Assembly: GCF_000341285.1 (NCBI RefSeq)
Contig: NW_005178449.1
Span: 108,323-172,322, forward strand
Direction: 5' to 3'
DNA length: 64,000 nucleotides
Origin: Galdieria sulphuraria
Taxonomy: Eukaryota; Rhodophyta; Bangiophyceae; Galdieriales; Galdieriaceae
Position numbers and translations under genes: made by a program
The notes under the pieces: model-generated
The model's input: the letters and a program-made list of their open reading frames with translations, nothing else
The model's database searches: none
What the model was told of the DNA's origin: nothing
Shown here: positions 21,291-63,160 of the stretch, piece after piece
Layout: every line of letters begins with the position of its first letter
Numbering within the stretch: position 1 is the stretch's first letter

Positions 21291-22398
21291 TCAAAGGTTT
21301 TGATTTGTATTTCTTCTGTTGTGTATCCCAAATAAGTCAAATTCCATGCTTTGAGTATATAAAGTGAACAGATGATTGCTCTTTTCCGAATAAACGACAT
21401 GATTATTTGGCTTTTTACTCCACAAGGCTATGAGAGGCATTGGGCCTCCTCCATAGATACCTTCAGCTGGTAATAATTTGGTTCCTACTGACAAGTTGAG
21501 TGAGTCTGGTCCTGCAGTTACAAATTGCCAACTGTCGGTAGACTTCTTAAAGTCAACTTCAGATTGATCCCATGTTATAAAGATGACAGAGTTGGAGTTT
21601 TTCCATATATCTGAGGATGTTATATTAGTAATTGCATCTTGAATGAACATATCTCCATTCAACAACTATCATTTTCTGTGGACAAACGGGCAATGCTTAT
21701 CATTTGGTCCTCCTTGTGGCAAAGCATCATATTCTACATGAGACGAATACTGTCCATGCATATCGTGGCAAACACCAGGAGTTATGAAACTAAAATTCGG
21801 TAGATTGCTATTTTTTAAATCATCCAAAATGTGCAAGTATGGCACAATATTCTTAACCCTTGTAGTGTTGCTGGTTATCTGAGAATACAATGCAAACGGT
21901 ACATGTCTTTTGACATAAACAGCAAAGTCTGAATTATTTGGATAATAATGGCCTAAGAAACCAACGTATTGAATAGCTTGGGTGTAGTTCTTCCAAGTCA
22001 TTTCCCTTTCATCGAGGAGACCCGCTATGTTTGTGTGGGTAAACTCCTAAAGCAAAGAAAGTTATTCTCATATAGCTAAAAGAAGTGGAATGATCTATAT
22101 ACCTGAGCAGGGTTATCAGAAAATTACCAAAACTGGAATTGCTATGTAGTTTGGTAGACTTGGATTGGTGTATCCATGGTAATGATCAGCATACATCTCT
22201 TCATTGATCAACTTGTTGATAAATGGCATGTCCATCTTACCAGTCATATTTGGTCTTCCGGTATTTTCCATCATAATAATGACTACATGGTCAAAGAATG
22301 GTAAAGAGGATGAGTTTCATGAAAAAGAAGGAGAAGAAGAAATACTAGCAGCCTTTGATGGTAATTATATTGAGTAAACAGCTGTAAAGGGAAAGCAT
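21291..22398 (-). pseudogene. Phosphoesterase-family (PF04185-like) pseudogene, copy A
   Basis: The intact family hydrolyses phosphate mono- or diesters (acid phosphatase or phospholipase C type) and is usually secreted. Going down the minus strand from 22398, one can read a hydrophobic leader (LSLYSCLLN), then FDHVVIIMMENTGRPN (the family N-terminal motif), SLPNYIA, a spliced-looking segment TNIAGLLDEREMTWKNY, SFITPGVCHDMHGQ, VIFITWDQSEVD, and a C-terminal LIALWSKKPNNHVVYSEKSNH. The frame breaks at least three times: around the leader (22345), near 22110-22140 where SSFGN and SDNPAQ sit in different frames, and near 21668. Each break disrupts conserved text, so the gene is dead unless the assembly is wrong. 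One intron (about 56 bp) is still visible at 22048-22102. Confidence 0.75.
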
Positions 22399-23689: not shown

Positions 23690-24740
23690 TCTTTCTCTGG
23701 ACCAACTCTTCGAAATCTTGAATTTGTTCTCAGTACTGTAACCAAAGATTGGCAAATAGGAAGCTTCTAGGATGATCTTGAGTGTATTCAAATGGTTGCT
23801 CGTCCTTTTTAATATCATACTCTTGTTTGGTAGTTTGCTCCATAGAACAATAAGTGAAACAGGACCACTTCCGTAGACATCACCAGTGGAAATTAATTTT
23901 GTAACAGGCTTTAGAATTGGTTTGTCAGGAACAGCTGAATATATATATATATATATTCTCAGCCACCTGTGGACTTGTTATTGTCATGATCTGCCTGATC
24001 CCGTGTCGGAAAGATGACTGAATTTGTTTTATTTCATATGTTAGAAGAAGATATATTCTTGATACATTCAAACATATTTGTCACCCAAAGTCCGGAGCAT
24101 CATTTAGTTCCAAGATGGACATTGCTTTCCACTTTGTCCATGCTTGTCATGGCAAATGTCTGGTGTTTTAAATGAATTACTGCGTAGTCTATTGTTTGCA
24201 AGATCTGCTAAAAGCTCTGAGTGGGTACGATATTGCGAGCTATGGCTGCATTCTTTGTTGTTTGCGGACAAAATGCGGAAGCAACAAGTTTCTTTGCATA
24301 TAATGCTTCAAGAATTTTTTGGATAAAAGTTGCCCAAAACCCGCTGAAGGAATTCTCTGAGCATAGCTTTTCCATGACATGCCATGATTCGCTATCAAGT
24401 AGACAATGTTAGTATGAGGGAAACTCTGTGACATCAACTTGAGTTTCTTTGAAAGAATCACGATGTTAGCGTACCTGTGAGAATCATCTGAGAATAATCA
24501 ATAATTAGAACCAGTTGTGATATCGATGTAGTTGAGTTAGCTTGGTTTTGTATAGCAATAATAATGAGATACGTACATTCTGGTTTTGATTAGTTCATGG
24601 ATAATGGCATTTCACTTTTATGCTCTGTTATATTTACTCTGCCATTATTTTTTAACATAAACCCGATGACATGATCAAAGAATGGGAGAGAAGAAGTATT
24701 CGCTGGAGGTATAAAGGATTGAGAATCGCTGCATACATGA
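23690..24740 (-). pseudogene. Phosphoesterase-family (PF04185-like) pseudogene, copy B
   Basis: This is a second, more decayed copy in the same orientation as copy A. Reading down the minus strand: SSLPFFDHV near 24695-24670 (the same leader end as copy A), a segment at 24461-24240 with MSWKSYAQRIPSAGF aligned to copy A's MTWKNYTQAIQYVGF, PDICHDKHGQSGKQCPSW near 24165-24110, and STGDVYGSGPVSLIVLWSKL near 23910-23850. The pieces lie in different frames with stops between them, and the region around the ITWDE motif is missing. A microsatellite of TA repeats (23939-23957) interrupts the 3' half. Same order and strand as copy A indicate an old tandem duplication. Confidence 0.7.
23939..23957. repeat. 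TA dinucleotide microsatellite
   Basis: A run of TA repeats of about 19 bases inside the second phosphoesterase relic. Confidence 0.85.
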
Positions 24741-44098: not shown

Positions 44099-47000
44099 AT
44101 GACTCTTCACAACCCTTTGAGAAGTCGTCTCAAGAGACTTATTTTCCTGTGGTTGTTATGGTTAGGTGGAAGCGTTGTATGGTTGCTGTTTATTTGGAAG
44201 CGGTTTGCACTGGTGACATCGTTTATTTCCGTGATTCCAAGCTTGGCAGTTGTCTTCTTGTTGATTGGGGAGACTTTATGTGTTGTGATAATGCTCGGAG
44301 CACACGTTTTGAAGATTCCTTTTGACCTTAGTGGAATAAGCATCCGTAAAGCCCTCTCTCTGTATGAATTGCAGTTTGAAAATAAATATGTAAATATAAG
44401 AGTCGCAAAATTTGGTCTAGAGACACATTTATGGAGATCGATTGCTTCAAGAAGAAGAACTGCATTATTTGATATATACATATCTGGAGCCGAAGTGGTC
44501 TTGAAAGAAACAGGTGGCCTGTCGAAGACGGCAGGGAGTAATTTTGACCTTTTGAAGACAAGCAATTATTTATTTCGTATTGTTCAAGAGCTTGGAAGTT
44601 CCTGGTCTAAGTTCCTGTTTGTCTGTTGTATTCGACTATTGTTCCTTTTAAGCATCTCATTCGACAATTGCACTTTGGCAATGAAACATGAAGATAAACT
44701 TCGTAAGTGTAAGTGATTAAACTTTGTTCTGTAAGTCTAACCATGGAACCTCTGTTAGAACGATTCATATCTCTAAACTCTCATTTGGAAGGCACTGATA
44801 CTGTAGACTATAATTGTTTCACTTGGAAGCTTGGGACTTTTAAACTTTTCATGGACACAACGTTGCCAGTACAAGTCAAACATACTGTGATTATTCTAAA
44901 AGTCGAAAATACGTATCTTACCTGCTCAGTATCACTTCAGAATATTTGGACAGAACGTCTGAGTGATCTTCAGAAATTGGATGTCGAAATAAGGATTCCA
45001 ACAGGTCGAGGTGCCTATGAAAAGGCACAATTTTCTTTATTTGTAGATACTCCATCTTTTCTATTACACCCTGAGCATTTGTTATGTTTCCTGAAGCCAA
45101 GAGAGCAAGGAGATACGACTTTGTCAGAGAGACGAACGACCATGGACAGTCATACATTGGAGATATTACGCTTATGGGACTTCAAGGTTGGAATGGTCAA
45201 CCTATCTTGTGTGTTTCCTGATGTCATTTTGGACAGCATGCATACAGATATTCTCTGTAGACTTAGTTTGGGACAGCTGAAATTTCTGCTTCAAGATGCA
45301 GCTTGTTCCAATACGTACCGTATGAAAGTAGAATTGAATGAGCTCTATTTATCTGATTCACGAGATAATTTCGATGATGTTAGAAAGTATTTAACTTCGC
45401 TTCAGAAACAGTTGGCCACAACAAAAAATTGTGGATTAAGAACGGAGTCCCAATTATTGTACAAGCATTGTCATTCATTTGACTGGCACATAGAAAGTCT
45501 CGTAGTTTGCTTGGATGTTGATATGAGTCACATTTATTCACAACTTGAAATATCTAATCCTGTTTTACTTGCAGAACCTGTGAAATTGGTTAGACTTTTG
45601 GATCGAACTCACTCTAGGTACCAAGTTTTTATTCATTTTCTTAAAACAGTCATTTCAAAAAGGCAGAAAAATCACGAAACTCCAGAAACTGGATTGAGTT
45701 GCAAAGGTTATTCATGGCAAGTTTCCGGTGAAGTAATGTCTGGATATCTCTGCTTTCATTTTGGTTTTCCTCAAGGAGAGGAAGCAATTCAAGCATATAT
45801 TTGTTCAGTCCCTCTTATCTCCATGGCAAAGAATTCTTTAACGGCTTCTTCTTTAAATGTTTATCAAATTCAGACAGAAGATACAGAATCGATTTTTTCC
45901 ATTTCAAAAGTAAAATATTTTCCAGCTCCTGAATGTGGCATGAAACTTTCTAAAGTCTTACTGAAATGGAGTCCTGATACTCATTCCTGTGCAGAATCAG
46001 CAATAGAATATGTAACTAACGCTTTAAGAAGTTGCAGTTTTGGTTGGAACAAAGTTCAACCTAGGCAAGAAGCAGGATTGAAGACTTCCAAGTTGAAACT
46101 TACCATTTCAGAAGTTGAAATATCCGCAAGCTTCCCAGATGACCCTCAGACGCAGATAACTATAGATGAACTATCAGAGATCCATATTGATTCTGGAATG
46201 CTTCAACTATCCAAACTCACTTGGAAGATCCAGAATCATATCGTTCTTTTCATTAGCCTGGCAACTTTCCATTTTTCATCTCATGACTTTTTTTCAGTTC
46301 CATTGGGAATTTACTGCAGACGAGTTATCTTTTGCTTACCATATGATCTCCACTTTGGAAATAGTTGGATGGAATTTTTCTGGAGAATGAAAGGATATCT
46401 TCTTAGAAAGAAAAGGTACATGTCAGCCTTGGGAAGAAGTTCGTTCCCAGACATGAATATTTCGATAGATGATTGCTCTGCAATATTTGAAGACCACCCT
46501 TGGGAGTCCTATTTGATGAAGCATAGACCTGTAATTAAAGATGAAACCGTCGAACAAATAAACAGAAGACACGTGTTGCGTAGAATATTGGAGCAGCTCC
46601 CAGCAGCAGAGAGAAATGCCTATGAGGCTCAGTGTTACTCTAAATTGGACGAAGAGAACGCTACTCTATATGCTTATCGTGTTCGTGAGGTCCAAAGATA
46701 TTGGCAGTTGGACCGATTCGATCTTAGTGGCATTGATGCACGACTGCCTCCCTTGTTGCTAGCTAATATCAAAAATTGTTCAATTTCTATTCGAAAGACC
46801 ACTGTTGACCATAATATTGACGCAAATATGGAAATGCTGAATGAGTTGTATAAATTAGATGAGTGTAGGGATATTCCCAATTCGGCACAGAACCCTTCTA
46901 TGTATAAGGATTTTGGAATACGACGAGTGGAATTTGTTTCATCATACTTTTCATTTCATCTTCGTGATTATCCATATAGCATTGCTACCGTAAAGAGTTT

Positions 47001-50000
47001 ATCTTTTTCCGGTAAAGTTGGTGCGATGGAACAGGCAACAAGGGAGCCTTTCATTCGCCACATGTTTGTTGCACTTGGTTCAAAGCTGTTTGCTGAGCTT
47101 AATAAGCAAATATCACCTCTAAAGATTTTTTTGGATGGGAAGTTGACACTGGAAGATGTTGAAGGAGTGTTTGGAGTAGGAATGCTTCCATCTTTTGAAG
47201 ACTTGTCTCAGTGTTTTCTTCGTCTTTCTCCTGATCGTTCTGATCCAAGTCCCCGCTTGGCTTGGTGGGATCAAGCGAGACTAATTTTTCATGGTAGAAT
47301 AGAAGTTGTTGTTCGAAAACTTAAGTACGATGTGTTAACATCCACATTTTGTTACTCATATTTGTCGTATCATACTGTCGAGGCAGACGAGTTAAATGCA
47401 TGCTTTACTCGTTGTGCCACAGATAAACCCTGTCCTTGGTTATCGGTTCAAATGAAATGTTTTAGTATTTCGGCATGCTATTTTGGAACGAGTTTGGGTT
47501 CATTCGTGAAATTAGATCAAGTCAAAGTGAATATTTCCTCAATTTTACAGACAGAAAGTGGTAATCCTGATAATCATTATATTCATCCATTTGCAGAAAG
47601 GAGTGAAGTTCCGTTTGTGGCTGAAACATGTAGAATGCCAAATAGGGGCGAGTTATTTAGGAAGCTTGCATGTAGCAGGCCTACTTGTCAACTGAAGAAT
47701 GTTCCGAACCATGATACTTATGGTGGTTTTCGTATTTCTTCTTTGTTCTTAAAAATTGAAATATTTTGTATCCCATCGCACAATCTTAAGAGTTGTCTTA
47801 TTCATAGCGACGATATTGCTTCAACTCTACAATGCATTGTAGCTATTAGAAATTCCATATTTCAGTGCATTCCTATCAGAAAAAAATTTGGCCATTCAAG
47901 AAAAGCAGAACCTGCAGGATTCTTGGAAGAGATTATGAAGACTTTTAAATTATATCTTAGTTCACAAGACATGCATTTTACCATTATAAACGATTTGAAT
48001 CCTGGTCATTCTTTGTTGGTGGAGACTAGCGATATAAATTTCTCTCTTACAAAAAGAAGAGACGGAGTAAATACACCCAATGCATTGAATGCCATGAGAC
48101 TGCTAGTTAAGAATTTGGACATTCGAATGAGGTCCCCATCATTGGACCAAGCAGCGAAAAGAGAAGAAGAGGAACCTTCAAGAGGCTCATTCTTTGTACA
48201 TATACCGATGTTTCTAGTACTTTTGGAAAGCGAAGTTGACTCATGTTTGAGAACAAGTAGTCGTATTATTTCCATGGAAAACCTCACACGTCTTTCCTCT
48301 TCGTCTTTAGGTAGTTTTTCTGTTGGTTCCGGTTATAATTCAGCTGATAATGAAATTTTACGTCGAATCGTGTTTGGTGGAGACTCAAGTGAAGATGAAG
48401 ATAATATTGAATGCAATTTTAATAATGAAAGCTCTGGTGAAACACTGTCCCACCTGCAACGCCTTTCCTTGAAAGAGCAAGGTTTTTCTAACCAGATTCT
48501 TGCTTTTGATGCTCGCATTTTGTGGACTGTAGAGAGGAGAGACTCACTGTCTGAATGGCCTCGAGCTATCTTTCTCAATTCGCATAAGAAGGGCGTAAAA
48601 ACTCTGGATAAGATAAGGAAGCATCAGAGGATTAGTAGTGCAGAGTTGGATCGAATTACAGAAGGAAATAGAAATGCTAGTAGCAATAAGGACGCCTTGC
48701 TTTCTCTTCTATCCGAGAATATACCGGAAACCCAAGATAGCAATTCGACATCGTCGTTAAAACGAAAGCAACTGGAAATTATAGCTTCGTATCCTCAGTT
48801 ACAACTTTCATTGATACGTCCCGTCGTGGCGCTTTGTTCTCCAGAGACAGAAGGAGTCTGTAAATTAGTCGCATCTTATGGGTACTTGACACTCGTCCAT
48901 CAGCAAGTAAAAGAAGATGACATTTGGAAGAGACTTGAGTTGCATGCCGGAATGGAAGATACTGTGATGTTTACTTTACCAAAGGGCATTTCCTTCGATC
49001 TTGACAGCATTGGAGTGACATTCGACTCTTCTTCCAACTTACGTGTAACCAATAGTCCGTTTGAAAGAATTTCCGGTCCTCCTATTTTAGTAGAAGTGGT
49101 CTATACATCACCTATGTCTGATGAAGTAGACATGGACAGCTTTCGTCCTAAAGCAATAACAGTCAAAGTTGCGGATCTAACGTTATCACTAAATTCTCCT
49201 CAATTCTTCATCTTCCTGACCGTTATTACGAATTTCCTGGTGAAACCTTTTCAACAGACTATTCGTTTGCAAGAGGAACTTGCAGTTTTGACGCATACCA
49301 TTCATCTTATCAAGCAGGGTCATTTGAGTCATCTTGATGCAAAACACTACACCAAACAAATTGTTGACATGGTCGATCTGATTGATAAACACCGCAGTCG
49401 TAGCCAATCTGACAAGGCCAGAAAGTTTTTTAATCTACTGGGGTCTCAAGATACTTGCGCCACAAGAAGGGAGCTGATTGACAAGGCCAGTGCGTTATTG
49501 GCCTACACTCTTCAAAAGCAACAGTCAGAGAGTGACCAAGGTTGGATGCCGAAATTCTACCTGGATGTCTGCATCAAGAAGTGCAAATTATTTTTGAAGA
49601 CTAGCGACTCCGATGAAACAGATTTTGCTGAAGCCACCATCGACCGTTTCCAAGTAAAACAGACTTCGACCTTGGATGGAGGAACGAAAATCGAGTATTC
49701 AGTAAAGGACGTCAAGATGAAGAATGTTTGTACCGAAAATGCGGCATTCAAAACTGCGCTCGCTGTTTCCAAGAAACAAATAGACATTTCAAAGAAAGAG
49801 CACTGTACAGAGAATGTGTTTACAATCGACGGAGATCCTGTTGCTTTTCGTTGGTTTACAATTCAATCTCCTCCAGTTGGACGAATCCATGTTGTTGATG
49901 TTTTAACTGTTGGCGTTGCACCTCTCGAAATAGCTTTGACGCGACATATTTCTGAAGAACTTTATCAATTTTTCATGCGAAAATCATTAAATGAAACTGA

Positions 50001-50937
50001 AGAGGAGGAAGAAAGACTTGACATTAAGGAAAATAATCTAAAAGGGAGTTCGCAAACTGTGCGTAAGGTTTCATCTTTTCTTAAGTCTGAAGTGTTCCTT
50101 CACGAAGGTAGCAGTGATTTGCATTCAATGGCAGCTAAATTGCGTTCCGTTATCCGAGGTGTTGAAGACTTTACGAAGGATTCAGGATTATCTTCTTTCA
50201 TTCAGGGAAAATGGACCAATCTGAGACGAACCTCTCCCGAAATCCAGCATGATACTTGCATTTCAGACAAGTTGACATTCTCGGAAGCAAAAAATGAAGA
50301 TGACGCGAGCAAAAAGCAACTGCTTACTAAGAAACGCATTCCTGTTGATGACCTAAGTTGTATGCGACAAAGAGAACAAAATAATATTCTGTTCAAATAC
50401 GTGTATGTGGGACAAGTCTCTTGGACAGTTTCTTTCAAATATAAGGATTCCGGAGAAGAAAAAAGTATTTTGGACTTTGAAAAAATAAGAATATCTCTAC
50501 CTTCTTTAATGTATCACTCTCATACGTGGTCTTGGACTGATCTCTTTGATCAACTTCGACGTGACGTGCAATCGCGGGTATTAGGACAAGCGTTATCACG
50601 GCTTGCTAGGAGAAAACTTTTGGGAGTTCGCGAATTGGGTCAAAAACTATGGCGTGAAGCCAAATCTCCGGACGCCATACGTATCCTTAGTCAAGCTTTT
50701 GGTAAGACAGAAGAAGAACTTGTGAAGGAAGTTGAAAACCTAGACTGGTCAGAGTCTGAAAACGAAGATAACGATGAAGGACAGGCTTCTTCATCTAGCG
50801 AATCTGCCACAGTTCAATCGTTTTCTCAGGGTAAAGAAAATTTACAAGGAAGACTTAAAAACGAAAGAGACCTGGAAAGGAAACGCCAAGTGTTCTTGCA
50901 AGTTATTTATGGAATTCATCCCAATTCATTTATGTAA
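44099..50937 (+). CDS. Giant FMP27/BLTP2-type bridge-like lipid-transfer protein
   Basis: Exon 1 is 44099-44702 and exon 2 44759-50937 (56-bp intron), 2260 residues. Bridge-like lipid-transfer proteins form long hydrophobic grooves between membranes, anchored in the ER by an N-terminal helix. Here the first about 85 residues have hydrophobic segments (FLWLLWLGGSVVWLLFIW, LAVVFLLIGETLCVVIML), followed by beta-rich text without recognisable enzymes. The C-terminal region carries FMP27/Hobbit-like stretches: a 'GFWDK-like' part with FRWFTIQSPPVGRIHVVDVL, a helical LHLIKQGHLSHLD, and the final LPSLMYHSHTWSWTDLFDQL. An acidic Ser-rich tail ends the protein. It is a little shorter than yeast Fmp27. 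VPS13 and Csf1/BLTP1 are alternatives, but I see no VPS13 VAB or DH-PH signals. The subfamily is an inference. Confidence 0.6.
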
Positions 50938-53181: not shown

Positions 53182-54349
53182 TCAATTGGACGATTTGCTC
53201 ACGGGCAACAAACTCAGCAACAGATAGACTTGTTCTGGAGTATATCCAAATTTAGTAAAGTAGTAGATACAATTCAGAACAGCTCTTTTGTACGCGACTG
53301 ATGCATCCATATAATACTGTTTTCCATATTCATCCACTGACACACCTTCAAATACTAAGAACTCAGAATATCTTGGTTCCAATGAACTGACTTCGAAGAT
53401 AGGATTGACATGTAGCTTTGTCGGTCCCATAGGAGATAGATACTTATCCATTCCATTTCGAATAATTTGACAACGCATAATCGCAAATACGGACATTTCA
53501 GAAAGACACTTCGCCATCACCTTGACTAGAATGAAGATCGCCCACAGAGAAGTTCGCACCTTCAACAAATACTGGCAAATAAATCCTGCTTCCTCTTGTC
53601 AAGTTTTTAATGTCACAATTTCCACCGTTTTCTCTTCCAGGAATGGGACGCGCAGCTTCCTCTGCAATCAGCTCAAATTCCGCACTCTTTGGGCTTATTG
53701 CACCTAATAGAGCTTCTTTTGGTTCCGGTAGCATAGCCATAGGACGATGATGCAACACAGCGGCAAGTGACATCTTCTCGATGTCTTCCTCTAACAATTT
53801 GCGTTCTCTTTCGTTCCATATTTCTAAAAGTTCTTTACTGGGAGCAGTTCCAATGAGACCTGGATGAATATTTCCAGCAAATTGTACTCCTGGTATGTGA
53901 CATGAAGAAGCATAAACTCCTTCAAGATCCCGAATAGCCTTTGCTGCATTTGGAAAATGGTCTGTAAGAAAGCCACCACCATTTTCTCGAACAAAAATTC
54001 CAGTATATCCCCATTCATGACCAGGAAGAGCACCAAGGTCACACAATTCAACAACGAGAAGGTCTCCTGGTTTGGCTGGTTTACCGTTTTCATCACATAC
54101 ACTAAAAGGACCAGACAAATGGTGATTCTTATTGATATTAATAGACTTTACATCTTCTGCATTATCGTCATTCTTAATTTGACCACCTGTGAAGTCAATC
54201 ATATCCACCCGAAATACTGAATTCACCTTGACTTGTGCAATTGGTGGAATATCAGGATGCCATCTATTGTGTAGAGGCTTTGGCTGTTGCGTTGGTGACA
54301 GATTAGGATCAATAGGAAAAATATTGGGTATTCTTTCCGTAGTGTTCAT
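53182..54349 (-). pseudogene. Formamidase/acetamidase (FmdA family) with deletion and lost C-terminus
   Basis: Formamidase releases ammonia from formamide or short amides. The first 54349-53504 part reads as an intact N-terminal three quarters: NRWHPDIPPIAQVKVN, MIDFTGGQIKNDDNAED, GDLLVVELCDLGALPG, HPGLIGTAPSKELL, SVGDLHSSQGDGEVSF. The next family block CGAIEMSG is interrupted: about 11 bases appear missing at 53497-53505, shifting the frame. Reading then continues in another frame with FAIMRCQIIRNGM, SPMGPTKLHVNPIFE, LVFEGVSVDE and DASVAYKRAVLNCIYYFTKFGYTPEQVYLLLS. The conserved end (EGRISGIVD...IP) is absent, replaced by a few residues and a stop at 53182. Two independent defects argue for a pseudogene. 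The remaining frame of 282 codons is still long, so loss is recent. Confidence 0.8.
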
Positions 54350-55596
54350 AGTTTCGTTGCTGAGACAAATTCTGTTGAACAATATTCCACAAATTGTAAA
54401 CTTGGCATGATGCGAATGCTTCTATATCCATTATTACCATTCATTCCGGTTCTAACCGCCACAATCTAACCGCCAGATCTCAACCGCCCAGATGAAGGGA
54501 ATCCACAGCTCATTGCAAGTTACTACTTTCAGGAATATGAGAAAGTAAAAGCTCTCGGAATACAAATGCCTGTAGACTTACTTCAGAAGTTAGAGTTTTA
54601 GGCAATGCTTTGGCTGGTTGAACCTTGGTTTATTGTGATGTTCTTCTGCGTTGACCAGGTGAAACGGATTACGTGAAACGTCTTTTTGATCTTCATATGA
54701 AATAATTCAGTGTAGAAATTCTATCTTTAGAGAGATATTTTCCTTAAGCTTCTCTGGCAAACTGTTTTCTTTGTAAAGTTTAAGCTTTCTTCTATCTTAT
54801 TCCGAGTGTGGCTACTTTCAAGCAAACAAAGAGCAGGAAGGAGATCTTAGGAGACTTGTACTATTTTAAGAGTTTGGTATACCTTTAACTTTTAGAAGAA
54901 AGTTGTTGCTACAATTTGTGAAATTCTATGCAAATATTCGAAAAAGACCAGAAATAGAACGTTTAGAAGGCACTTTACGTTATTCTGTTGGAAAATCCGT
55001 AACTAGTTGTAGAAATGATAATAGTGAAACTACTGATGATGATATTTCTGAGAAACGGCTGCTTGGAGTTGTTATTTGGTACGTTCTATTGTTGGAGAGG
55101 AGGGTAGCAGAAGCGAGACGGTGTCAACGGTATACAAAGAGACTTGTGAAAAAGTACTTTAGTCGTCAAAAGTGTTGCTGATTTGTCTTTCCTCACAACT
55201 CTCTCAACGTCGTAACTGTCAAGGTGGTGGTGGAGATAACTGGTAAGAATGGAAAAGGGGACACGACATTCTTGTGGCACCACAACCTAGCATTATACCA
55301 GCGAGTTCATAGTCTTCTCTTAAATAGTTTATCAATAACTTTTCAGGGTTCTCTATATAGATTGGTATTTCAATGTTAAAGCAGAAGACCTTGTCAAAGT
55401 CATTCTTCTCTCGAAGCGTAACTAACATTGGCATTCGAGCATATTGGTAAGATATCTCAAGTTACTAACCTCGTAATGACTTTGCAGTGAGATAAAAACA
55501 AAAATTACATGTCTTTATTAGGACTACGACTTCTATAAGGCTTCCATCACCTTCCACAGGGAAATCATGGGCATACCACAAACTAGTCCATAAAAG
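54350..55596. other. Intergenic region containing one copy of a diverged repeat
   Basis: Between the formamidase relic and the NTPase gene, both on the minus strand. The part at about 54960-55300 resembles 62820-63160 in the same orientation (see repeat entries). A plus-strand frame of 92 codons (54903-55181) and minus-strand frames of 65-71 codons overlap the repeat and have no domain. Confidence 0.45.
54960..55300 (+). repeat. Diverged dispersed repeat, copy 1
   Basis: Aligned by eye to copy 2 near 62820-63160. Matching landmarks in the same order are: gatgatatttctgagaaacg / gatagtgtttctgaaaggca, gttggagaggagggtagc / gttggaaagaagggtaac, gagacttgtgaaaaagtact / gcgacttgtgtgaaacagta, gtcaaaagtgttgctgattt / gtcaagagtgctgctgatct, and ggggacacgacattcttgtg / aggaaacacaacattttgtg. 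Identity is roughly two thirds with small indels. No terminal repeats seen. Confidence 0.6.
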
Positions 55597-58071
55597 CTAC
55601 TTTGCTAAAAACTGTCGTATTCCTAACATAATTCGCAATCTTAGTGAAGGATTATCGATACCACAATCAAAAAGAAAATCTGTCGTAACGCCATCAAAAT
55701 CTCTTACTCCTATGAAGGACAATCTAGGCAAACAATAGGCAACATCCTCTTCAGAAAGACCACAACGATCTCTTAGGAAAGTATTCCAATCAAATGACGA
55801 AGACAAAGAACTCGATGCTGCAACCCTTTGTTCGCCTCGTGTATCTCCTTCTTCCACTTGCATAGCACTTTGATAACCTTCCATTTGCATCCTATTCTCC
55901 TCATTGGTTCTCGGTCTTATATTTCGAGCCACTCTTAAAGTAACAGTTGATTGCTCCAAAGGCGAAACATATTCATTGGACATCGACTCAAAGACAGTTT
56001 CACACCATACTGAAAAGTCTTTAGAAAACTCTCCTCGGTTTGCTTCCCCAATTTTCCTCAACGTTTCGACATTATCTCTTCCCAAATACACTTCAAGGTT
56101 CCTTTGAGAAACAATTACCAATTGCAGACATGATCGACTACTTTCATTCAAAGTTGATCCCGAAGAATGTTGAGTCACAAAACCACTTGCATCTTCAACA
56201 ATATTATGTTCTTCGGTAGAGAAACCTACAGATTGATCATATCTAGTACATACTACCACAAACTGAAAACGAAGTTGAACAGATGAAAAAGATTCGTCAT
56301 TCAAAACGGAAACAACTCCCTTAAAAAATTGTGCTGTTTCCCTGTTAATAACATTTCTCGACAAGTTACTTTTGTGATAAAATTTGAATGAAAATCCAAC
56401 AACATAACGTGTCTGTCCATTATGGAATACAACATATGCATCAGGGCCACTAGAATTGCCATCCTTTGGAACAAAAATACCACAACGTTGTAAATAATCT
56501 CTATAATGAACAGAAAATGAATCAGAGACATCTCTCAAGATGGGTATATCATAAGATTTTGTTGATTCCATAGAATAAGAAACATTGTCCTGTTCAATAA
56601 AAGAACCCTGGAAAATTCCTGGAATAGCAGAATGTACAATAGGCGAGGAACTAGAATGAAGAAAAGTTAATAAGCGAAAACAAAAGATCTTCATAAATAC
56701 AAATTCAAAGAAGACTCCCTTTGCTGTTGAAGTGTCGGGAATATAACTAAACGGAGATAAAGGAAAAAGTTCAGTAGCCTCACGGAAAAAGTTATAGTTG
56801 CTATGAGCTCGCAATATAAATTCACAACAACCAATCTTGAACTTAGTGCCCAAATCAATCCCGTCAGTTTCACAAATTTCAGAATAAAACCCAAAAGTTG
56901 CAACCAAGTCCATCAAATAAGTTTTTGTTCCACATAGAGTAATTGCAAATCCGACTGGAAAAACTGTTCCGAGCTGATAATTCAAAAAGACAAATTCATA
57001 TCGAAGAAGGGTTGCGGAATCTAATATCTCCGGAATAATAAACGTTCCCGACTCATTTAGTATATCTGCAAAGACACTATCTAATAAAAATTCCATATTG
57101 TCATTGTTGATAACAGGTTGAGATAAGTTTGCAAGTTTCCCTACTAGGGCTAGTAAAGTATTCTTTACAATCAACGGAATACCCCCTGTCTTCTTCTTCA
57201 ACAATTCTACGAATCGATATCGTAATTCATCAGAGGGCAATAAACAGTCCTTCAAGGACTTTCCATCATAAGTTGCCAGCTCAATATATTCGTTAATATC
57301 ATGGAGGTTAAAGGGATTCAACCGCAACATACGGAGACTCACTCTACTGGAGCGAGCATCAGACAGGCGGGCTGAGATTTCAGCAGTTCGCCCAGCAAGA
57401 TACAAGATAACTTTTCCTGTATCAAGCAACTCATATACAGTTCGAAAAAATTTGCGATACGGGATATAACCAGGATCGGACTCGACAAACTGTTTCATGG
57501 TAAGTTCACTATAGTATTTGGTGAGGTCACTCAGGTGGCTAAGTTCGTCTATCATCAAAAATAAATATTGTTTCTGAAACTGTTCGAGAAGATAATCAAC
57601 AAATAAAAAAACACCAAAATGCTTCATCGCTGCGTCCGTAAATTCAACAATTTCTCGGGCACTCATACCATTACACTCGGCTGTAGCCAAAACTATATTA
57701 TACATCAAAGCCTCTAGAAAACTTGGAAAAGGAGCACCAGAAAAGCTCTCTCCTAGTTTAAAGCAAACTGACAAAGTGTTTTCCGCAAAGTGCTTCCAAG
57801 AAAAAATCTTCGCATCAACTTTTCCCGACGAGCTCTTGTTGAAAACCTCCGTCTTCGTCTGCTCTTCTTCTTCGTCGGCGAATTTTTTTAAAAACTCTAA
57901 AAATTTTTGACCTACAAAGCTTTTGCCCGCCCCAAAAATGTGAGGGGAGAAGCAAGCTCCAGGACGTAAAAGATCTAATTTTCCCCCAGCTGAAGAAAAC
58001 TGGTAGTAATAAGTTCGAAGAATAGAATAAACATCTTCTTTTCTATCTATCAACGGTTCGTTCAAACTCAT
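55597..58071 (-). CDS. Large P-loop NTPase with nuclease-like region and SAM-like C-terminus
   Basis: Single exon, 824 residues, in an otherwise intron-rich window. Residues 40-60 hold a P-loop-like SPHIFGAGKSF (first Gly of the classic motif replaced), 169-180 a Walker B YLFLMIDELSHL with Asp175-Glu176, 219-228 a sensor-like strand KVILYLAGRT, and 242-260 an Arg-containing SSRVSLRMLRLNPFNLHD. This is the layout of STAND/archaeal-ATPase-like and Crinkler/RHS-type NTPases. About 455-610 look like a PD-(D/E)XK nuclease fold: FFEFV with Glu456, GPDAYVV with Asp544, and GFSFK with Lys563. The last about 65 residues (FLRDRCGLSEEDV ... NPSLRLRIMLGIRQFL) resemble a SAM domain. Archaeal-type ATPases are an expanded, transferred family in Galdieria (from memory). 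The start is the first ATG. Role unknown; DNA handling, self/non-self recognition or a mobile-element origin are all open. Confidence 0.6.
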   Translation of the reverse strand: MSLNEPLIDRKEDVYSILRTYYYQFSSAGGKLDLLRPGACFSPHIFGAGKSFVGQKFLEFLKKFADEEEEQTKTEVFNKSSSGKVDAKIFSWKHFAENTLSVCFKLGESFSGAPFPSFLEALMYNIVLATAECNGMSAREIVEFTDAAMKHFGVFLFVDYLLEQFQKQYLFLMIDELSHLSDLTKYYSELTMKQFVESDPGYIPYRKFFRTVYELLDTGKVILYLAGRTAEISARLSDARSSRVSLRMLRLNPFNLHDINEYIELATYDGKSLKDCLLPSDELRYRFVELLKKKTGGIPLIVKNTLLALVGKLANLSQPVINNDNMEFLLDSVFADILNESGTFIIPEILDSATLLRYEFVFLNYQLGTVFPVGFAITLCGTKTYLMDLVATFGFYSEICETDGIDLGTKFKIGCCEFILRAHSNYNFFREATELFPLSPFSYIPDTSTAKGVFFEFVFMKIFCFRLLTFLHSSSSPIVHSAIPGIFQGSFIEQDNVSYSMESTKSYDIPILRDVSDSFSVHYRDYLQRCGIFVPKDGNSSGPDAYVVFHNGQTRYVVGFSFKFYHKSNLSRNVINRETAQFFKGVVSVLNDESFSSVQLRFQFVVVCTRYDQSVGFSTEEHNIVEDASGFVTQHSSGSTLNESSRSCLQLVIVSQRNLEVYLGRDNVETLRKIGEANRGEFSKDFSVWCETVFESMSNEYVSPLEQSTVTLRVARNIRPRTNEENRMQMEGYQSAMQVEEGDTRGEQRVAASSSLSSSFDWNTFLRDRCGLSEEDVAYCLPRLSFIGVRDFDGVTTDFLFDCGIDNPSLRLRIMLGIRQFLAK

Positions 58072-62819: not shown

Positions 62820-63160
62820 TTTTACCGAGAGTGAAATATGTCTAAAACGATATGTGAGTAGTAAGAGTGATAAAGTTGGCACTAGTATCGATAGTGTTTC
62901 TGAAAGGCATCGATTGCAAATCGTCTTTGGTCCTTATATAGTTGGAAAGAAGGGTAACAGTAGTAGGAAGGTATGAATGGGAAACAAGGCGACTTGTGTG
63001 AAACAGTATTTGCGTGTCAAGAGTGCTGCTGATCTGTTTTTTTCCCAACACACTGAAGATCATTCTGTTGAAAGTAGTGGTAGTTGTAGCTGTCAAAAAG
63101 TGAAAAGGAAACACAACATTTTGTGCAAACAGGTTGCGTTTGGATAGTATACAAAGCATC
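62820..63160 (+). repeat. Diverged dispersed repeat, copy 2
   Basis: Partner of the repeat at 54960-55300, same orientation, about 7.9 kb away, on the other side of the NTPase gene. Landmarks are given in the copy 1 entry. The minus strand has an open frame of 124 codons (63216-62842) across it, while copy 1 is open on both strands only in short pieces, so I do not call a gene. Confidence 0.6.

What the first reader, a model, noticed from the sequence alone, without database searches (positions are those of the whole stretch)
55597..58071. Intronless NTPase + nuclease-like + SAM-like protein: best candidate for an undescribed system
The gene differs from its neighbours: one 824-codon exon in an intron-rich genome, flanked by a fresh pseudogene and a gene-poor tract. 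Its domain order (P-loop/Walker B, sensor strand, then Glu456...Asp544...Ser-Phe-Lys563, then a SAM-like helix bundle) matches the general plan of Crinkler/RHS-type NTPase-nuclease proteins described by Aravind and colleagues, and the archaeal-ATPase-like families of Galdieria. A SAM-type interaction domain on such a protein would be unusual. The P-loop lacks its first Gly and the nuclease motif has Ser in place of Glu/Gln, so activity may be altered. Domain naming is from motifs only.
Basis: partly seen in the sequence, partly recalled or inferred. Interest (0 to 1): 0.8.

Follow-up and report, generated by a model that had tools for sequence, protein, structure and literature searches.

The report
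Red-algal NTPase with SAM tail
A single uninterrupted gene, probably from a hot-spring red alga, encodes a protein that seems to couple a molecular switch (a P-loop NTPase) to a tail resembling known protein-assembly (SAM) domains; the proposed DNA-cutting middle part could not be confirmed.

Summary
The 824-codon frame at 55597-58071 (minus strand) is real and its codon use resembles its neighbours'. Of the three proposed parts, two hold up to different degrees. (1) Residues about 134-302 behave as a P-loop NTPase: Walker B, sensor strand, R-L-x-P and GGxP align in order with ATPase_2 proteins (hhalign 39.6; 1 of 500 shuffles reaches it). But single KAP, NACHT and nSTAND3 proteins score similarly against that profile (medians 32.5-36.4) and 32 MJ1010-like ATPase_2 proteins higher (53.7 or more): the broad class is supported, the subfamily is not. 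(2) The C-terminal 65 residues are predicted from sequence alone as five helices; by title 46 of the 50 PDB matches listed (of 59) are SAM or SAM-like. (3) The nuclease is motif only; three nuclease-family profiles gave no convincing support. No Crinkler header was found. No relative turned up, but no eukaryotic genome collection could be searched. One long exon is not distinctive here. NTPase-SAM pairings have precedents (SAMD9/9L, KIDINS220). Best reading: a divergent NTPase-SAM switch, perhaps part of Galdieria's expanded NTPase repertoire; mechanism inferred.

The parts
55597..58071 (-). Single-exon gene, 824 codons plus stop
   Evidence: codon score like neighbours
57919..57942 (-). P-loop (Walker A) HIFGAGKS, residues 44-51; first Gly replaced by His
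   Evidence: Sequence and position; short alignments of FGAGKS to KAP and NACHT P-loops, not above chance (4 of 100 shuffles each)
57523..57567 (-). Walker B strand YLFLMIDELSHLSDL, residues 169-183
   Evidence: Aligned to the Walker B of ATPase_2-type profiles
57280..57414 (-). Sensor strand KVILYLAGRT (from 220) to RMLRLNPFNLHDINEYIE (247-264)
   Evidence: Collinear with the ATPase_2 profile
57166..57195 (-). GGxP motif KKTGGIPLIV, residues 293-302
   Evidence: Meets GGxP in the extended alignment; 27 of 34 proteins of the profile carry [GD]GxP after residue 150
56152..56754 (-). Middle region, residues 440-640, with E456, D544, S561-F-K563; nuclease-like by motif only
   Evidence: Positions; no convincing profile support
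55600..55794 (-). C-terminal SAM-type five-helix domain, residues 760-824
   Evidence: AF2 mean pLDDT 79, Foldseek, weak SAM_5 and SAM_2 Pfam matches

Best explanation
The gene encodes an intracellular NTP-dependent switch with a self-association tail. Supported by profile and fold comparison: an N-terminal P-loop NTPase of the AAA+/STAND/KAP broad class (P-loop, long insert, Walker B with Asp-Glu, sensor strand, GGxP) and a C-terminal SAM-type domain. Inferred: NTP binding and hydrolysis toggle the protein between resting and active states; the SAM domain drives oligomers or docks on another SAM protein; this concentrates the middle region (350-760), which would be the effector or sensor. The likeliest setting is a fast-evolving conflict or surveillance role, in line with the expanded, species-restricted NTPase genes reported for Galdieria, but neither activity nor target is shown.
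For: NTPase: hhalign 39.6 over residues 134-264 against 34 ATPase_2 proteins; of 500 shuffles of residues 1-350 one reaches it (1 of 100, 0 of 400); best of 15 pieces of 7 other window proteins 27.1; GGxP aligned. A 28-sequence profile gave 31.1-31.3 with 0 of 40 shuffles for each of three segments. SAM: five helices at mean pLDDT 79 from a single sequence; top PDB match Sla1 homology domain 2 (prob 0.99, TM 0.82 on the target, rmsd 2.0); by title 46 of 50 rows shown (59 matches in all) are SAM or SAM-like; full-length model's best PDB match is the SAMHD1 SAM domain (E 3.6, prob 0.44); Pfam SAM_5 E 0.13 and SAM_2 E 0.21 on the last 69 residues. Similar pairings in SAMD9/9L and KIDINS220. Expanded lineage-restricted NTPases in Galdieria: passages of PMC6629376 and PMC9812998.
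Against: No Pfam, NCBIfam or PADLOC family passes a cut-off. A 32-protein MJ1010-like profile gave only a 13-column Walker B match (2, 0 and 2 of 40 shuffles reach it for three segments). KAP, NACHT and nSTAND3 profiles are near chance. The first P-loop Gly is missing. All Foldseek E-values exceed 0.5; the SAM Pfam matches are below cut-off, only SAM_5 (E 0.22) remains on 79 residues and neither on the full protein. The full-length model is poor (pLDDT 35), so there is no fold evidence for residues 1-759. No relative or expression datum: oligomerisation and a conflict role are untested. The organism is inferred.
Confidence: 0.45

Rival explanations
1. A divergent member of the subtelomeric 'archaeal ATPase' gene family of Galdieria: an ATPase_2-type protein acquired from prokaryotes, amplified and remodelled, here fused to a SAM domain.
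For: Best profile match is ATPase_2 (z 6.5 against 1.3, 2.0 and 2.2 for nSTAND3, KAP, NACHT); GGxP; passages of PMC6629376 and PMC9812998 describe many such genes beside telomeres, with no hits outside the species; AT-rich gene-poor tract beside the gene.
Against: Single nSTAND3, KAP and NACHT proteins reach medians 35.0, 32.5 and 36.4 against the same profile, and 32 MJ1010-like ATPase_2 proteins at least 53.7, above this protein's 39.6. No Pfam ATPase_2 match at E up to 10. GC3 and codon score are native. The other side of the gene carries ordinary genes (13 of 16 pieces scanned match Pfam families), so a subtelomeric place is not shown.
Confidence: 0.3
2. A Crinkler/RHS-type NTPase plus PD-(D/E)XK nuclease, with the nuclease as toxic effector and the SAM replacing or adding to the usual modules.
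For: NTPase followed by E456...D544...S-F-K563; [quoted passage not shown] a CRN REase can go unpredicted because of sequence diversity (PMC11064341 passage). A five-sequence PDDEXK_9 profile is near the edge: 4 of 100 shuffles for residues 440-640 and 1 of 100 for 530-620.
Against: That PDDEXK_9 match is 11 columns (residues 552-562), stops before K563, faces a template stretch without Lys, and the profile shows little power in controls. Mrr_cat: 78 (440-640) and 63 (530-620) of 100 shuffles reach the score; DUF234: 87 and 100 of 100. The Mrr test has some power: 28 single DUF234 C-termini score median 21.9 against Mrr. No Crinkler header. Ser replaces Glu/Gln in the motif.
Confidence: 0.15
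3. A decaying or catalytically dead copy kept as a scaffold, or a gene without present function.
For: P-loop Gly lost, Ser in place of Glu/Gln in the nuclease motif, no detectable relatives, frame-broken neighbour.
Against: 824 codons stay open (chance about 9e-21) with codon use like neighbouring genes; GK[ST] and the Walker B Asp-Glu are kept.
Confidence: 0.1

Closest known systems
ATPase_2 (PF01637) proteins, archaeal ATPases, often with DUF234
   Same: Walker B, sensor strand, R-L-x-P and GGxP in the same order
   Different: Scores below all 32 MJ1010-like ATPase_2 proteins tested, long insert after the P-loop, no detectable DUF234, SAM tail
SAMD9/SAMD9L
   Same: SAM domain, STAND-like P-loop NTPase and a nuclease (tRNase) effector in one protein; aberrant P-loop
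   Different: SAM at the N-terminus; AlbA/tRNase, Sir2-like, TPR and OB parts; homology was not tested here
KIDINS220 (KAP NTPase)
   Same: P-loop NTPase followed, after a proline-rich part, by a SAM-like domain (PMC12558908 passages); FGAGKS resembles the KAP WGxGK[ST] P-loop (not above chance)
   Different: Ankyrin repeats and other parts; KAP profile near chance here
Crinkler/RHS (CR) proteins
   Same: NTPase followed by a region with PD-(D/E)XK-like residues
   Different: No header domain, no detectable REase, SAM tail

Membership tests
P-loop NTPase (AAA+/STAND/KAP broad class) | Walker A, Walker B and downstream core strands in order | tested here: met
   Profile alignment 134-264, 1 of 500 shuffles reaches the score; the P-loop is seen in the sequence but lies outside the scored alignment
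ATPase_2 (PF01637) | Score in the range of known members | tested here: not met
   39.6 against a minimum of 53.7 in 32 MJ1010-like proteins; no Pfam match at E up to 10
STAND NTPases | GxP motif after the NTPase core (recalled as a STAND hallmark) | tested here: inconclusive
   GGIP at 296-299 meets GGxP; NACHT and nSTAND3 profiles near chance, 4 and 9 of 100 shuffles reach
KAP NTPases | KAP profile | tested here: inconclusive
   4 of 100 shuffles reach the score; no positive control run for this profile
SAM domain | Five-helix SAM fold | tested here: met
   Pfam support weak and below cut-off
Crinkler/RHS proteins | N-terminal header (Crinkler, Ubl type) | tested here: not met
   No Pfam match at E up to 10 on the full protein (other header types not tested); only 43 residues precede the P-loop
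Crinkler/RHS proteins | REase-superfamily nuclease | tested here: inconclusive
   Motif present, no convincing profile support; low power for divergent families
Galdieria 'archaeal ATPase' paralogue family | Clusters with the paralogues of the same genome, subtelomeric place | not testable with these tools
   No genome held; no paralogue in the window

The most novel reading that the evidence does not exclude
A red-algal, lineage-specific surveillance protein in which an ATPase_2-derived switch, a degenerate PD-(D/E)XK-type effector and a polymerising SAM domain form an NLR-like or SAMD9-like cell-death or anti-invader machine, part of the unexplained telomere-linked NTPase expansion of Galdieria.
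Probability: 0.12. Interest if true: 0.75.

Novelty: new variant of a known kind. Interest (0 to 1): 0.35.

Why it matters
The role of Galdieria's large set of NTPase genes is disputed: adaptation to temperature in one reading, telomere-linked rapid evolution in another (passages of PMC6629376 and PMC9812998). An NTPase joined to a SAM assembly domain would point to signalling or surveillance rather than heat tolerance, and gives a testable protein. As it stands the finding is a plausible new domain combination without known relatives or activity.

Tried and rejected
Searches without relatives: viral contigs (four scans: whole protein, 1-350, 439-640, last 83 residues), genome contigs, plasmids, 36 genomes of one archaeal phylum (where the tool says an empty answer shows nothing without a positive control). 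Phages gave one E 9 match in two records of the same phage, taken as chance. PDB sequence searches gave only chance-level rows (syntenin 0.07-0.61, dethiobiotin synthetase 0.64, flagellin 0.76, a regulator 1). BLASTP against one Methanocaldococcus ATPase_2 protein gave nothing (best E 0.23). The full-length AF2 model is too poor for residues 1-759. In one search hhalign was set to global mode by mistake and those rows were discarded; its hmmsearch rows stand but their E-values are for a search of a single sequence (MJ1010-like profile 0.013 over 104-184 around Walker B; DUF234-type profile best stretch 0.094, also at Walker B). Considered and rejected: that a second copy of the gene starts at the right end of the window; no similarity beyond chance (best E 1.0). 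The 'SAM domain' passages of PMC7159879 concern radical SAM enzymes and do not bear on this.

Rows left out of profiles: DUF234 set 28 proteins from 34 loci; MJ1010-like set 32 from the 40 loci L007-L046 of 46 fetched; ATPase_2 set 34 = 6 kept of 11 loci given (30 fetched) plus the 28 DUF234 proteins; nSTAND3 8 of 8 given, KAP 15 of 17 given, NACHT 17 of 19 given (30 loci fetched for each); Mrr 20 of 20; PDDEXK_9 5 of 5.

Full report
What is there. The window holds an ATG-to-stop frame of 824 codons at 55597-58071 on the minus strand. Its length is far beyond chance (about 9e-21 with the stop frequency of the adjacent tract), and its codon score and GC3 lie within the range of nine neighbouring coding stretches, on which the codon table was trained. 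That argues for a functional gene of native composition and against a recent foreign insert. The organism is inferred to be Galdieria: GC about 38%, a eukaryotic gene set, no whole genome held for it, and genome GC of 36.9-37.9% for three Galdieria strains in a passage of PMC6629376. No call proves it.

Is it set apart from its neighbours? Not by being one long exon. Stop-to-stop frames of 2074, 818, 743, 673 and 622 aa occur in the same window, the last open at the window edge; the first four match ordinary Pfam families (Hobbit, HEAT_ECM29, DEAD helicase, RNase III-like). The gene-poor side is real and more AT-rich: 33.5-34.6% GC in the last three 2-kb bins against 35.2-42.4% in the other 29. 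The neighbouring formamidase is read in two frames that together cover most of the Pfam profile; I saw no intron between them but did not test splice sites. It is a broken gene or a sequence error.

The NTPase. Pfam finds no family above its cut-off; for residues 1-350 the weak matches are AAA_22 (E 0.12) and DUF7022 (E 0.18), for the full protein DUF7022 alone (E 0.32). I built profiles from proteins fetched with Pfam families. Against 34 ATPase_2 proteins (28 of them from DUF234 loci; by the titles of the loci that gave the handles, archaeal and Bacteroidota) residues 134-264 score 39.6. Of 500 shuffles of residues 1-350 one reaches this (40.0 in the first 100; maximum 29.8 in the next 400). 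The best of 15 pieces from 7 other window proteins scores 27.1. The alignment joins Walker B (LFLMIDEL), the following strand (VILYLAGRT) and RMLRLNPF in order, and in the extended alignment GGIP meets the GGxP that 27 of the 34 carry as [GD]GxP. The extension did not align the two P-loops; this protein has a long insert between P-loop and Walker B, and its P-loop (HIFGAGKS) rests on the motif. Against nSTAND3, KAP and NACHT profiles the protein is near chance (9, 4 and 4 of 100 shuffles reach the score), and against a 32-protein MJ1010-like profile only 13 columns at Walker B align (2, 0 and 2 of 40 shuffles reach it for three segments).

How specific is that? Less than the shuffles suggest. 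Single nSTAND3 (n 8), KAP (n 15) and NACHT (n 17) proteins reach medians of 35.0, 32.5 and 36.4 (maxima 50.7, 57.7, 77.0) against the same ATPase_2 profile, and 32 MJ1010-like ATPase_2 proteins not in the profile reach 53.7 to 103. The protein therefore sits with the broad class and below all of these members. 'P-loop NTPase of the AAA+/STAND/KAP class' is supported; 'ATPase_2 member' is not.

The C-terminus. Without any alignment, AlphaFold2 predicts the last 83 residues with mean pLDDT 79 (the other four models 59-73) as five helices. Foldseek against the PDB gives Sla1 homology domain 2 (a SAM-type fold, recalled) at probability 0.99 with TM 0.82 on the target, then BICC1, SAMSN1, ANKS3 and others; by title 46 of the 50 rows shown (59 matches in all) are SAM or SAM-like, the exceptions being a RAD51-paralogue complex, two NusA entries and an RNA polymerase alpha-CTD complex. 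All E-values exceed 0.5. Pfam SAM_5 and SAM_2 match the last 69 residues at E 0.13 and 0.21, below their cut-offs; on 79 residues only SAM_5 remains (0.22), and on the full protein neither. In the full-length model the only confident region is again here, and its best PDB match is the SAMHD1 SAM domain at E 3.6.

The nuclease. E456, D544 and S561-F-K563 are present. Against Mrr_cat 78 of 100 shuffles (residues 440-640) and 63 of 100 (530-620) reach the score, against DUF234 C-termini 87 and 100 of 100. A five-sequence PDDEXK_9 profile is nearer the edge, 4 and 1 of 100, but the match is 11 columns (residues 552-562), stops before K563 and faces a template stretch without Lys. As a control, 28 single DUF234 C-termini score median 21.9 (maximum 35.3) against Mrr, while DUF234 and Mrr proteins score medians of only 11.6 and 12.8 against the PDDEXK_9 profile. 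So the nuclease stays a motif-level guess, weakened but not excluded.

Relatives. None was found in viral contigs, prokaryotic genomes, plasmids or phages, and none in the window. None of these is a collection of eukaryotic genomes, so the protein may still have many Galdieria paralogues. Passages of PMC6629376 say that the 211 'archaeal ATPases' of G. sulphuraria 074W had no hits outside the species and, by unpublished data, lie next to telomeres; passages of PMC9812998 call such genes highly duplicated in Galdieria subtelomeres. This gene may belong there, but that could not be tested.

How it probably works. Supported: an NTPase-class core and a SAM-type tail in one chain. Inferred: the NTPase acts as a switch, the SAM domain drives assembly or docking, and the middle carries the effector or sensor. 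SAMD9/9L (SAM, STAND-like NTPase and a tRNase, with an aberrant P-loop of its own; abstract and part 1 of the Findings of PMC5445408; passages of PMC12331169), KIDINS220 (KAP NTPase and SAM-like domain; passages of PMC12558908) and fungal NLR N-termini with SAM_Ste50p (passage of PMC9815663) show that such pairings are known. The comparison is of working plan, not of membership.

Novelty. Searches of the open-access library for Galdieria with Crinkler (one paper, on a white rust genome, seen in the listing only), with archaeal ATPase and with subtelomeric and ATPases (in both the two papers whose passages I read), and for at least two of Galdieria, SAM domain and NTPase (10 of 26 listings seen) showed me no description of such a protein. 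Zhang et al. 2016 on Crinkler/RHS proteins is not held and was known only through passages of other papers. I rate it a new variant of a known kind of NTPase fusion, of moderate to low interest until paralogues and activity are known.

Noticed in passing
55005-55276 and 62857-63125: Degenerate direct repeat, 68% identity over 275 columns (E about 1e-27 with sensitive settings; not reported by the stricter search), 7.85 kb apart, bracketing the gene and the gene-poor tract. Gaps are of one or two bases, so it does not look like conserved coding sequence; no Rfam family reaches its gathering score anywhere in the window.
   Followed up: partly
21305-22310 and 23718-24694: Diverged direct duplicate, 58% identity over 1050 columns.
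   Followed up: no
53182-54349, minus strand: Formamidase (FmdA_AmdA) read in two frames, broken at about 53500 with no intron seen.
   Followed up: partly
44713-50937, plus strand: A 2074-aa stop-to-stop frame with the Hobbit/FMP27 family, a very long uninterrupted stretch for an intron-rich genome.
   Followed up: no
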